Shown: positions 42,933 through 45,186 of the stretch, piece by piece | Layout: each line of letters starts with the position of its first letter | Numbering within the stretch: position 1 is the stretch's first letter | Origin: Streptomyces sp. NBC_00094 | GTDB lineage: Bacteria; Actinomycetota; Actinomycetes; Streptomycetales; Streptomycetaceae | Assembly (NCBI RefSeq): GCF_026343125.1 | Contig: NZ_JAPEMB010000001.1 | Coordinates: forward strand, 5,151,501-5,215,500 | DNA length: 64,000 bases | Reading direction: 5' to 3' | The notes under the pieces: generated by a model | Databases searched by the model: none | What the model was told of the DNA's origin: nothing | Seen by the model: only the letters and a program-made list of their open reading frames with translations | Position numbers and translations under genes: made by a program

Positions 42933-43643
42933 ATGAACTCCCGCCAGCGCCGCGGCGTGATCCTGTTGCTGCTCTCCGTCCTGTGCGCCCTCGGCGCCTT
43001 CGCCGGCGTCCTCACGGTCATCAGCGACGTGAACTCGAAGGTCGGCCCGGAGGTCACCGCGTACCGGCTCAAGGAGGACGTGGCTCCCTACAAGCCCCTG
43101 AGCGCCGGCCAGTTCGAGAAGATCTCCATGCCCAAGCGCTGGCTCTCCGCCACCGCCGTCACCGATCTCCGCCAGATCGAGGGCAGGATCGCCGTCACCC
43201 GGCTGAAGGCCGGCTCCCTCCTCCAGAACGACATGATCGTCCAGCGCCCGGAACTCAAGCCCGGCGAGCAGGAGATCGCGATCATGATCGACGCGGCCAC
43301 CGGCGTCGCCGGAAAGATCACCGCCGGTGCCACCGTCAACATCTACGCCACCTTCGCCGGTGAGAAGAAGGGCGATCCCTCCCAGTCACGGATGATCGTT
43401 GCCGGCGCCCGCGTCCTCTCCGTCGGCAAGCTCACCCCCATCGGCGACAGCAACGGCCGCGCCGGCCGGTCCGCCGCCGAGGCCGTCCCGATCAGCTTCG
43501 CGCTCTCCACCCTCGACACCCAGCGCGTCGCGTACGCCGAGTCCTTCGCCGAGCACGTACGCCTCGCCCTCGTCGCCCCGACCACGGGCGGCGCCCCGGC
43601 CGACCAGCGCGACCGCACCTACACGCTCGACAAGGACAATTGA
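42933..43643 (+). CDS. cpaB: CpaB/RcpC-like SAF-domain pilus assembly protein, 3' end altered by a tnpB element
   Basis: The ATG at 42933 follows GAGGAAG and gives 236 residues. An N-terminal membrane helix (GVILLLLSVLCALGAFAGVLTVI) precedes a SAF domain (KEDVAPYKPLSAGQFEKISMPKRWLSATAVTD) and the RcpC/CpaB region (LKPGEQEIAIMIDAATGVAGKITAGATVNIYATF). In tad systems this protein lines the route of the pilus through the envelope. The last residues are TLDKDN, and the stop TGA belongs to the right end of the tnpB element. Removing the element (43640-45157) would extend the protein in frame by IFGGTR to a TGA just before the next tad gene, so the C-terminus is likely shortened by insertion. Confidence 0.9.
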   Translation: MNSRQRRGVILLLLSVLCALGAFAGVLTVISDVNSKVGPEVTAYRLKEDVAPYKPLSAGQFEKISMPKRWLSATAVTDLRQIEGRIAVTRLKAGSLLQNDMIVQRPELKPGEQEIAIMIDAATGVAGKITAGATVNIYATFAGEKKGDPSQSRMIVAGARVLSVGKLTPIGDSNGRAGRSAAEAVPISFALSTLDTQRVAYAESFAEHVRLALVAPTTGGAPADQRDRTYTLDKDN

Positions 43644-43668
43644 ATCCTCCCCTCCCTAAAGGGAGGGG
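43640..43668 (-). ncRNA. Predicted 3' end of the TnpB-associated omega RNA (copy 2)
   Basis: On the minus strand CCCCTCCC (43668-43661), loop TTTA and GGGAGGGG (43656-43649) form a perfect 8-bp hairpin that overlaps the tnpB stop codon, followed by AGGATTCAA. The guide would then start at 43639 and read TTGTCCTTGTCGAGC, which is the end of the cpaB-like gene. The 5' boundary inside tnpB is unknown. Confidence 0.6.
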
Positions 43669-44882
43669 ATTCCTGGCTCACGTTGGCTGCGGACCGGCGG
43701 TCCGGCAGCTCTTGCACGATCAGCACCAGCCGGGTTGAGACCAGCCCGGGTCAGCATCACGAGGGCGGAGTTCTTGTCCCTGGGGGACACGGCTCCACAC
43801 GCGGTGCAGGTATAGGTACGTTCCGAGAGAGGTAGCGCGTGCTTGGTTCTCGCTCCGCACCGTGCGCAGTCCATGGTGGTGTGCGCGGGGTGCACGAGGC
43901 GGATGTCCCGCCCGTGTTTGCGGCCCATCTCGATCAGGGCCGTCTTGGTGGCGCCGATCGCGGCGTCCGCCGCCTTGCGTGCCATGGTCGTCTTCGCGAG
44001 AAACTTCGGCCGGAAGTCCTCGACGGCCAGGACGTCATGGTCGGTCACCACGCGCTTGGCCCACTTGCGGCCGGTGTCCTGCCGCTGTCGGGCGATCTTC
44101 TTGTGGATCTTCGCGGTCTGCCGTCCGGCTTCCCGGTAGCCCTTCGACGCGGGCCGGCCGGGCTTGGGCTTACGGCGGGCCATCATCCGCTGGTAGCCGG
44201 CCAGGCGCTGCGCAGCGTTCCTGCCGTGCTGTGCGTGGGGGAGGTCGTGGGCGTCCGAGGTGGTGGTGGCGGTTTCCCTGACGCCCCAGTCGATGCCGAT
44301 CACGCGCCCGGTGGTGGGCAGAGCCTCGACGGTTGTCGCCACGACGAACGAGGCATACCAGTGGCCGAGGCTGTCGCGGTAGACGCGGACGGAGGACGGC
44401 GGCTTGGGCAGCTTGCGGGACCACACCACCGTCAGGCTGATTCCGCCTGCGAGACACAGGCGTCCGTCGTTCAGTCGGAACCCGCGCTGTGTGTAGTTCA
44501 GCGACGGAGCGGCGGTGCGCTTCTTCTTGTGCTTCGGCATCCCCGCGCGCTGGCGCTGTGGCACCAGGGCTTTGATGTCCTTCAGCGCCTTCGCGCGAGC
44601 CTTGGCGAAGTCGCGGACGGTCTGCTGTTGAGGTACCGAACTTCCCTCGCGCAGCCATGCGTTCAAGCCGCGGGCCTCGGTCAGCATCTTGTCCAGCCCG
44701 GCCGGGCCGCACGCTTCCCCGATGGCGTAGGCCTTCTTCGAGCGGGCGCAGCACTCGTTCCAGATCCACCGGCACCGCGCCCACTCCGCAAGCAGTGCGG
44801 CGCGGGCGGTCGACGACACGCGGAGCCGGTAGGTGTACCGGGCGAGCCCGGCATCCACGCCCGTTCCCCGCAGTGTCGCCAT
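43656..44882 (-). CDS. tnpB: TnpB, RNA-guided nuclease of an IS605-type element (copy 2)
   Basis: The ATG at 44882 gives 408 residues. It belongs to a different branch from copy 1 (little identity outside motifs). Catalytic residues are all present: D198 (VIGIDWGVRE), E288 (LAVEDFRPKFLAK) and D369 (SPRDKNSA). The zinc ribbon is intact (C339/C342 and C359/C362). An N-terminal helical region (YRLRVSSTARAALLAEWARCRWIWNECCARS) and a lysine-rich KHKKKRTAAPSLNYTQRGFRL segment complete the usual layout. It lies opposite to the tad genes and is divergently transcribed from a small RHH gene 50 bp away. The 3' end overlaps the predicted omega RNA hairpin. Confidence 0.94.
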   Translation of the reverse strand: MATLRGTGVDAGLARYTYRLRVSSTARAALLAEWARCRWIWNECCARSKKAYAIGEACGPAGLDKMLTEARGLNAWLREGSSVPQQQTVRDFAKARAKALKDIKALVPQRQRAGMPKHKKKRTAAPSLNYTQRGFRLNDGRLCLAGGISLTVVWSRKLPKPPSSVRVYRDSLGHWYASFVVATTVEALPTTGRVIGIDWGVRETATTTSDAHDLPHAQHGRNAAQRLAGYQRMMARRKPKPGRPASKGYREAGRQTAKIHKKIARQRQDTGRKWAKRVVTDHDVLAVEDFRPKFLAKTTMARKAADAAIGATKTALIEMGRKHGRDIRLVHPAHTTMDCARCGARTKHALPLSERTYTCTACGAVSPRDKNSALVMLTRAGLNPAGADRARAAGPPVRSQREPGIPSL

Positions 44883-44891
44883 GGTGTCATT

Positions 44892-44919
44892 ATGCCACCG
44901 TCAAGCCGTCAAGTGGCAT
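44892..44919. promoter_or_regulatory. Operator-like repeats between tnpB and the RHH gene
   Basis: ATGCCAC (44892-44898) and GTGGCAT (44913-44919) form an inverted repeat that encloses two direct copies of CCGTCAAG (44898-44905 and 44906-44913). The whole lies in the 50-bp gap between the two divergent start codons. Tandem 8-bp sites are typical for ribbon-helix-helix dimers. Confidence 0.6.
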
Positions 44920-44932
44920 CTACAGTGGAGTC

Positions 44933-45091
44933 ATGGATGAAGAGAAGCGCATCACTCTCCGCCTGCCTGCCGATCTCCACGCGTGGCTGGCAGGCGAAGC
45001 AAAGTCCGCCCGCAGGTCCCTCAACTCCGAGATCATCCATCGGCTGGAGGTCGAGCGCGACGCAGCCCTGTCGGGCGGTGAATCGCCCTGA
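44933..45091 (+). CDS. Arc/MetJ-type ribbon-helix-helix DNA-binding protein inside the tnpB element
   Basis: This 52-residue protein starts at the ATG at 44933. EEKRITLRLPADLHAWLAGE gives the beta strand and first helix of an RHH fold, and AKSARRSLNSEIIHRLEVERD the second helix, with the Ser-x-x-Asn-Ser-Glu-Ile-Ile signature of Arc-like repressors. RHH proteins bind DNA as dimers with the strands in the major groove. It is divergent from tnpB across an operator-like repeat, so it probably represses itself and tnpB. An antitoxin role is possible, but no toxin gene is next to it. It ends in a terminator that overlaps its stop codon. Confidence 0.82.
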   Translation: MDEEKRITLRLPADLHAWLAGEAKSARRSLNSEIIHRLEVERDAALSGGESP

Positions 45092-45103
45092 CGGCGATTC
45101 ACC
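45077..45103 (+). terminator. Terminator overlapping the end of the RHH gene
   Basis: GGTGAATCGCC (45077-45087) pairs perfectly with GGCGATTCACC (45093-45103) around the loop CTGAC, which contains most of the stop codon. Confidence 0.75.
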
Positions 45104-45137
45104 TACTCCCGCCCTGCTCCGCAGGAGCCCGACTCCT

Positions 45138-45157
45138 CCCCGACCTGCAGGCCGGGG
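45138..45157. repeat. Imperfect palindrome near the left end of the tnpB element
   Basis: CCCCGACCTGCAGGCCGGGG can fold into a hairpin with one mismatch. A second small hairpin (CCTGC-TCC-GCAGG, 45113-45125) precedes it. Subterminal hairpins like these are the recognition structures of single-strand transposing IS605-type elements. Confidence 0.5.
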
Positions 45158-45186
45158 CATCTTCGGAGGAACCCGGTGATGCCGGT

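What the first reader, a model, noticed from the sequence alone, without database searches (positions are those of the whole stretch)
44882..44933. TnpB paired with a divergent ribbon-helix-helix regulator and its repeats
The 50-bp gap holds an inverted repeat around two direct copies of CCGTCAAG. RHH proteins bind such tandem 8-bp sites. A TnpB nuclease controlled by an element-encoded repressor would be a dedicated dosage switch. I know of TnpB elements without any regulator, so this pairing deserves a survey.
Basis: partly seen in the sequence, partly recalled or inferred. Interest (0 to 1): 0.62.

Follow-up and report, generated by a model that had tools for sequence, protein, structure and literature searches.

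The report
TnpB element with Arc-like repressor gene
A small Streptomyces mobile element carries, back to back with its RNA-guided DNA-cutting enzyme TnpB, a gene for a tiny DNA-binding protein that very probably switches both genes down; the pairing recurs in dozens of other Streptomyces and some related bacteria, although the exact DNA repeats that first drew attention occur in no other copy examined.

Summary
The pairing is real; the reported direct repeat is not the conserved part. Window 43640-45175 is an IS605-type element (IS1341-like, no tnpA) between cpaB and cpaE. Its ends are fixed by an empty site in a relative; the inferred TAM is TCAC. It carries a TnpB with an intact RuvC triad (43656-44882, -) and a divergent 52-aa Arc-like ribbon-helix-helix protein (44933-45091, +). 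In 296 Streptomyces genomes 57 RHH relatives occur; 55 lie divergently beside a tnpB, some beside a TnpB subfamily only about 25-35% identical. Conversely, 30 of 110 TnpBs of this subfamily have an intact RHH, 7 a relic and 73 none, so the RHH is an optional, repeatedly lost (or exchanged) part. RHH is under purifying selection, also in a copy at the same chromosomal site in another species. The CCGTCAAG tandem occurs in no other RHH locus. What recurs are TAnnnT -10 boxes 6-7 nt before the RHH start (with a matching box before tnpB) and a CCAC core, often repeated at 11 or 22 bp; TRCCAC occurs in 30/48 RHH+ and 1/73 RHH- tnpB promoters. Best reading: an element-encoded Arc-type autorepressor that also represses tnpB. 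Binding and repression are inferred, not shown.

The parts
43640..45175 (.). Whole element (about 1536 bp), IS605-type without tnpA, inserted between cpaB and cpaE
   Evidence: Comparison with the empty cpaB-cpaE junction of L171 (92% cpaE) and ten other relatives; ends recur in other copies: LE border followed by GTGA in 59 of 79 matched copies (loose pattern), RE border TTGAATCC. Exact base uncertain by 1-2.
43656..44882 (-). tnpB, 408 aa, RuvC D198/E288/D369 present
   Evidence: Pfam OrfB_IS605 2.4e-13, Cas12f1-like_TNB 2.6e-10; NCBIfam guided_TnpB 4.8e-69; DED in all 129 TnpB rows compared
44933..45091 (+). rhh, 52-aa Arc-like ribbon-helix-helix protein
   Evidence: Pfam Arc PF03869 27.5 bits, cut-off 20.4; profile hits AmrZ, Mnt, Arc; model pLDDT 89.5, best folds AmrZ and Arc
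44889..44894 (-). -10 box CATAAT of tnpB, 6 nt before its ATG (predicted leaderless)
   Evidence: Sequence; the same position reads TAGAGT or similar in relatives
44921..44926 (+). -10 box TACAGT of rhh, 6 nt before its ATG (predicted leaderless)
   Evidence: TAnnnT 6-7 nt before the start codon: 35 such placements among 46 RHH genes with ATG/GTG start
44895..44898 (+). CCAC core beside the tnpB -10: most conserved operator-like core
   Evidence: Near-invariant in the long-gap class; TRCCAC in 30/48 RHH+ vs 1/73 RHH- tnpB promoters
44892..44919 (.).
   Evidence: Read from the sequence; the same arms form the perfect palindrome GATGCCACCGTGGCATC upstream of solo rhh genes in L036, L056, L057, L229; right arm not conserved in L042
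44898..44913 (+).
43640..43830 (-). Right end with hairpin at the tnpB 3' end; expected 3' part of the omega RNA, with the guide starting at 43639 leftward
   Evidence: Strong terminal hairpin (z -1.8 for the whole stretch); position inferred from TnpB biology; guide strand TTGTCCTTGTCGAGCG read
45092..45175 (.). Left end with palindromes (GAATCGCC..GGCGATTC starts just inside rhh; CCTGCTCCGCAGG)
   Evidence: shared with other copies
45176..45179 (-). Flanking GTGA, i.e. TCAC on the tnpB strand: inferred TAM

Best explanation
The 52-aa protein is an element-encoded Arc-type repressor. Dimers insert a beta-ribbon (by alignment with Arc, residues R6, T8, R10) at CCAC/TGCCAC-type half-sites in the gap. 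These overlap the two face-to-face, apparently leaderless promoters of tnpB and rhh. Binding lowers rhh (negative feedback) and tnpB together, so TnpB and its omega RNA stay low in an established host. They could rise briefly when the element enters a naive cell or when repressor falls. Shown: gene pair, conservation, selection on rhh, -10 boxes, association of the CCAC core with rhh, catalytic residues, element ends and empty site. Inferred: DNA binding, repression, feedback, leaderless starts, any burst on entry.
For: 55 of 57 RHH places in 296 genomes lie divergently beside a tnpB; 25 of 26 loci in a partly new sample of the order. Specificity: of 80 viral Arc-like loci only the two closest have a TnpB, and the weak phylum hits are unpaired. 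Arc-family match by sequence and fold. rhh dN/dS 0.14 between the window and L042 at the same site, against 0.24-0.35 for the flanking host genes; median 0.26 over 91 pairs. RHH and TnpB distances correlate (Mantel r 0.47, p 0.0005). TRCCAC 30/48 vs 1/73; CCAC-CCAC spacings peak at 11 and 22 bp; 8 of 17 held-out loci have TRCCAC. P22 itself has overlapping divergent promoters at the Arc operator.
Against: 73 of 110 TnpBs of the subfamily do without it, so control by RHH is dispensable. The association of the core with rhh was found on the same data, and on phylogenetically independent pairs it is 4:0, p 0.125. This copy's own gap has lost the second and third CCAC and the middle of the gap is poorly conserved. 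RHH subfamilies with other N-termini mostly lack TRCCAC, so the operator is not one fixed sequence. The rhh dN/dS rests on 50 codons. No expression or binding data.
Confidence: 0.75

Rival explanations
1. RHH does not mainly control transcription but acts on the element's DNA: it coats the left end or promoter region and modulates transposition by a Y1 transposase supplied in trans.
For: The element lacks tnpA, rhh occupies the tnpA-like divergent position, and one Y1 transposase gene exists elsewhere in the genome.
Against: The conserved sites sit on -10 boxes, not at the terminal palindromes; copies without rhh share the same ends and are multicopy in some genomes.
Confidence: 0.08
2. RHH is an antidote: it restrains TnpB by protein contact as well as by repression, as RHH antitoxins do.
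For: RHH folds are common in antitoxins; pairing is tight; gene distances correlate.
Against: 52 residues leave almost nothing beyond the DNA-binding fold, and the C-terminal 12 residues are weakly constrained (pN/pS 0.68); the genes are divergent, not one operon; TnpBs without rhh are abundant.
Confidence: 0.07
3. RHH is a passenger or host-directed regulator that happens to ride with TnpB.
For: Solo copies sit upstream of an NAD synthase gene in L056 and L057, and in the same context in L229, so the family can serve other promoters.
Against: Almost exclusive co-location with TnpB in two distant TnpB subfamilies, and operator-like sequence in the shared gap.
Confidence: 0.06
4. The pair is decayed debris with no present function in this strain.
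For: 7 RHH relics and many losses in relatives; this gap has diverged from the consensus.
Against: Both ORFs intact, RuvC triad present, dN/dS well below 1 since divergence from L042 at the same site.
Confidence: 0.04

Closest known systems
P22 Arc repressor and its operator between divergent Pmnt and Pant
   Same: Same Pfam family (Arc PF03869), about the same length, conserved RS-NSEI motif, small repressor acting on overlapping divergent promoters; the operator shares the 10-mer CACTCTACTA with the gap of L024 and L021
   Different: Phage lysogeny circuit; base-contact residues Q-N-R in Arc (own knowledge) against R-T-R here (by alignment); the shared 10-mer may be chance and is not in the window
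AmrZ (PDB 3qoq) autorepressor
   Same: Best sequence and fold match; contact triad K-V-R resembles R-T-R; GGC half-sites with a 5-bp linker (PMC3325190), as in the solo-rhh palindrome GCC-ACCGT-GGC (opposite orientation)
   Different: Host global regulator of Pseudomonas with extra termini, not carried by a mobile element
IS200/IS605 and IS1341-type TnpB elements
   Same: TnpB, palindromic ends, no target duplication, TAM next to the left end, right end at the tnpB 3' end
   Different: Textbook elements carry tnpA and/or tnpB and no repressor gene; here an RHH gene occupies the divergent position
TldR (nuclease-dead TnpB-like RNA-guided repressors; named in PMC13418256)
   Same: TnpB relatives linked with transcription control
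   Different: Here TnpB keeps its catalytic residues and the regulator is a separate DNA-binding protein

Membership tests
Arc-like RHH repressors (PF03869) | Profile score above the curated cut-off | tested here: met
   27.5 bits against 20.4
Arc-like RHH repressors (PF03869) | Ribbon-helix-helix fold | tested here: met
   Helices 13-25 and 30-47 with an extended N-terminus, pLDDT 89.5; top folds AmrZ and Arc, TM 0.69-0.85, Foldseek E only 0.02-0.07. The strand forms only in a dimer, which was not modelled.
Arc-like RHH repressors (PF03869) | Binds operator half-sites cooperatively and represses | not testable with these tools
   Only comparative sequence evidence
TnpB RNA-guided nuclease | TnpB family profile and intact RuvC D-E-D | tested here: met
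   guided_TnpB 233.5 bits, cut-off 100; DED
TnpB RNA-guided nuclease | omega RNA and guided cleavage next to the TAM | not testable with these tools
   TAM TCAC and guide inferred from element borders only
IS200/IS605 superfamily element | Palindromic ends and insertion without target duplication at a fixed 4-5 nt flank | tested here: met
   Empty site and recurrent GTGA flank
IS200/IS605 superfamily element | Y1 transposase tnpA in the element | tested here: not met
   None in the element; one PF01797 gene elsewhere in the genome; hence IS1341-like
TldR | Loss of RuvC catalytic residues | tested here: not met
   DED intact
Type II toxin-antitoxin | Antitoxin and toxin in one operon | tested here: not met
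   Genes are divergent

The most novel reading that the evidence does not exclude
A whole class of TnpB elements in Actinomycetota carries a dedicated Arc-type repressor that sets nuclease dose: repressed when resident, released on entry into a cell without repressor, a zygotic-induction-like burst that lets TnpB act in naive cells while sparing established hosts. The operator and its number of 11-bp-phased half-sites co-evolve with the repressor.
Probability: 0.25. Interest if true: 0.75.

Novelty: new variant of a known kind. Interest (0 to 1): 0.55.

Why it matters
How mobile elements limit a self-carried RNA-guided nuclease is an open question; TnpB is usually discussed as controlled only through its own mRNA and omega RNA (own knowledge). 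A recurrent repressor-TnpB pair gives a direct test: delete the 52-aa gene and measure tnpB, omega RNA and cleavage. In the open-access library searched I found no paper that describes it; databases annotate the two genes separately.

Tried and rejected
CCGTCAAG as operator: rejected, absent from all other loci. RHH in all copies of the element: rejected (30 intact of 110). Dead TnpB (TldR-like): rejected. Toxin-antitoxin operon: rejected by gene order. Phage origin of the pair: only two of 80 viral Arc-like loci have a TnpB. More copies in genomes without RHH as evidence of copy control: looked at, not discriminating (both kinds occur in 4 or more copies), not pursued. Several literature searches found no TnpB-RHH paper; the main TnpB classification paper (PNAS 2023) is not held, so prior mention cannot be excluded.

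Full report
What is there. The window lies in an 8.2-Mb Streptomyces genome. Between cpaB (ends 43643) and cpaE (starts 45187), genes of a Flp/Tad pilus-type cluster, sits an element at 43640-45175. Eleven relatives have cpaB and cpaE directly adjacent; in the closest (L171, 92% identical CpaE) the junction reads GACAAGTGAGGCCGGTATG, against GACAA[element]GTGATGCCGGTATG here. The element thus inserted without duplication, with GTGA next to its left end. The same flank appears in 59 of 79 copies matched by a loose pattern, and TTGAATCC at the other end recurs. On the tnpB strand this gives TAM TCAC followed by a guide from the cpaB side. The element encodes tnpB on the minus strand and a 52-aa Arc-like RHH on the plus strand; no tnpA. 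One Y1 transposase gene lies elsewhere in the genome.

Is the pairing more than chance? A search with the 52-aa protein in 296 Streptomyces genomes gave 57 places in 43 genomes. Looking at every place, 55 lie divergently beside a tnpB or a tnpB fragment; the exceptions are L036, a solo gene, and L039, degenerate. In L020 a deletion appears to have joined the two genes (counted as paired). Several of the TnpBs (L040, L197-L207) belong to a subfamily only about 25-35% identical to the window's, so the association spans distant TnpBs. A sample of the order, partly new genomes, gave 25 of 26 loci paired. Pairs also occur in Planomonospora, Actinomadura and on a Thermobispora plasmid annotated as 'transposase' and 'Arc family DNA-binding protein'. 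The control: weaker Arc-like proteins are not beside TnpB.

The reverse survey. TnpBs close to the window's (E below 1e-100) occur in 98 of 296 genomes. Of 110 such loci examined, 30 have an intact RHH, 7 a recognisable relic and 73 none. On the TnpB tree the RHH state needs about 19-20 changes, clustered far beyond shuffles; relics show that some of these are losses. RHH is thus an optional module, lost or exchanged often. Copies without RHH have different sequence upstream of tnpB.

Selection. L042 (Streptomyces griseoluteus) carries the element at the same cpaB site. Between it and the window dN/dS is 0.14 for rhh, 0.26 for tnpB, 0.24 for cpaE and 0.35 for cpaB: both element genes look constrained in place. 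For rhh over 91 pairs the median is 0.26; residues 2-40 are much more constrained than the tail.

The gap. The tandem CCGTCAAG and the 7-bp inverted pair (read) are in the sequence, but the tandem is found in none of 75 other loci and L042 lacks it. In the class with a 50-bp gap the consensus is CATGgtgtCActcTaCCACtggccaacCactcGaaa.CCACTACtcTGGgGTC-ATG: a TAnnnT box 6 nt before the rhh ATG, a corresponding box before tnpB, and CCAC cores 11 bp apart. In a second class the gap is about 22 bp shorter and one CCAC core lies directly between the two -10 boxes, which nearly touch. CCAC-CCAC distances over all loci peak at 11 and 22 bp. The TAnnnT box 6-7 nt before the rhh start (35 placements among 46 genes) fits leaderless starts, which make up about 21% of primary starts in S. 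coelicolor, where the -10 motif is TANNNT (PMC4895711). TRCCAC is in 30 of 48 RHH+ and 1 of 73 RHH- promoters and no relic; the motif was chosen on these data and sister-pair counts are 4:0 with p 0.125, so this is strong association but weak phylogenetic proof. In 17 held-out loci 8 have it, mostly in the close RHH subfamily. In the window the first core is CCAC, the second and third positions read CCGT and CATC, and an inverted TGCCAC/GTGGCA pair is present instead.

Mechanism. The protein matches AmrZ, Mnt and Arc by profile and fold. AmrZ reads two GGC half-sites with K-V-R (PMC3325190); the aligned residues here are R6-T8-R10. RHH dimers usually bind side by side in helical phase (RelB in PMC2812701; Arc half-sites about 11 bp apart, from my own knowledge). 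The simplest model is a repressor covering both -10 boxes, giving feedback on itself and low tnpB. A burst of TnpB on entry into a naive cell would follow, but nothing here tests it.

Limits. No binding or expression data; the operator is inferred; the guide and TAM are inferred; literature access was partial, so 'not described' means not found in the library searched.

Noticed in passing
L036, L056, L057, L229 (upstream of RHH): Solo members of the same RHH family, with no TnpB, lie directly upstream of a glutamine-dependent NAD synthase-like gene (seen in L056 and L057) with a perfect palindrome GATGCCACCGTGGCATC before the RHH start: possibly a host-adopted copy.
   Followed up: partly
L141, L146, L150, L162 and others (upstream of tnpB): Many RHH-less tnpB copies share another conserved upstream block, GACCRTACGTACGAC ... 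CGTTCGC, of unknown role (another regulator's site or part of the left end).
   Followed up: no
L092, L095, L099, L104, L114 (upstream of tnpB): A second RHH-less class has TGTCAGT about 10 bp from a TAGGTT-like box just upstream of tnpB, on the tnpB strand, and a very short left end.
   Followed up: no
L021, L024 and L210 (X01916) 59-79: The 10-mer CACTCTACTA of the P22 Arc operator also occurs in these tnpB-rhh gaps; may be chance.
   Followed up: partly
window 43640-43643 and L042: The element supplies the stop codon of cpaB (AATTGA instead of AAGTGA) and sits at the same site in S. griseoluteus, pointing to an old, stably kept insertion.
   Followed up: partly
G000:C1:5043938-5045101 (L005): A second TnpB, 75-76% identical, in the same genome without a detectable RHH.
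   Followed up: no
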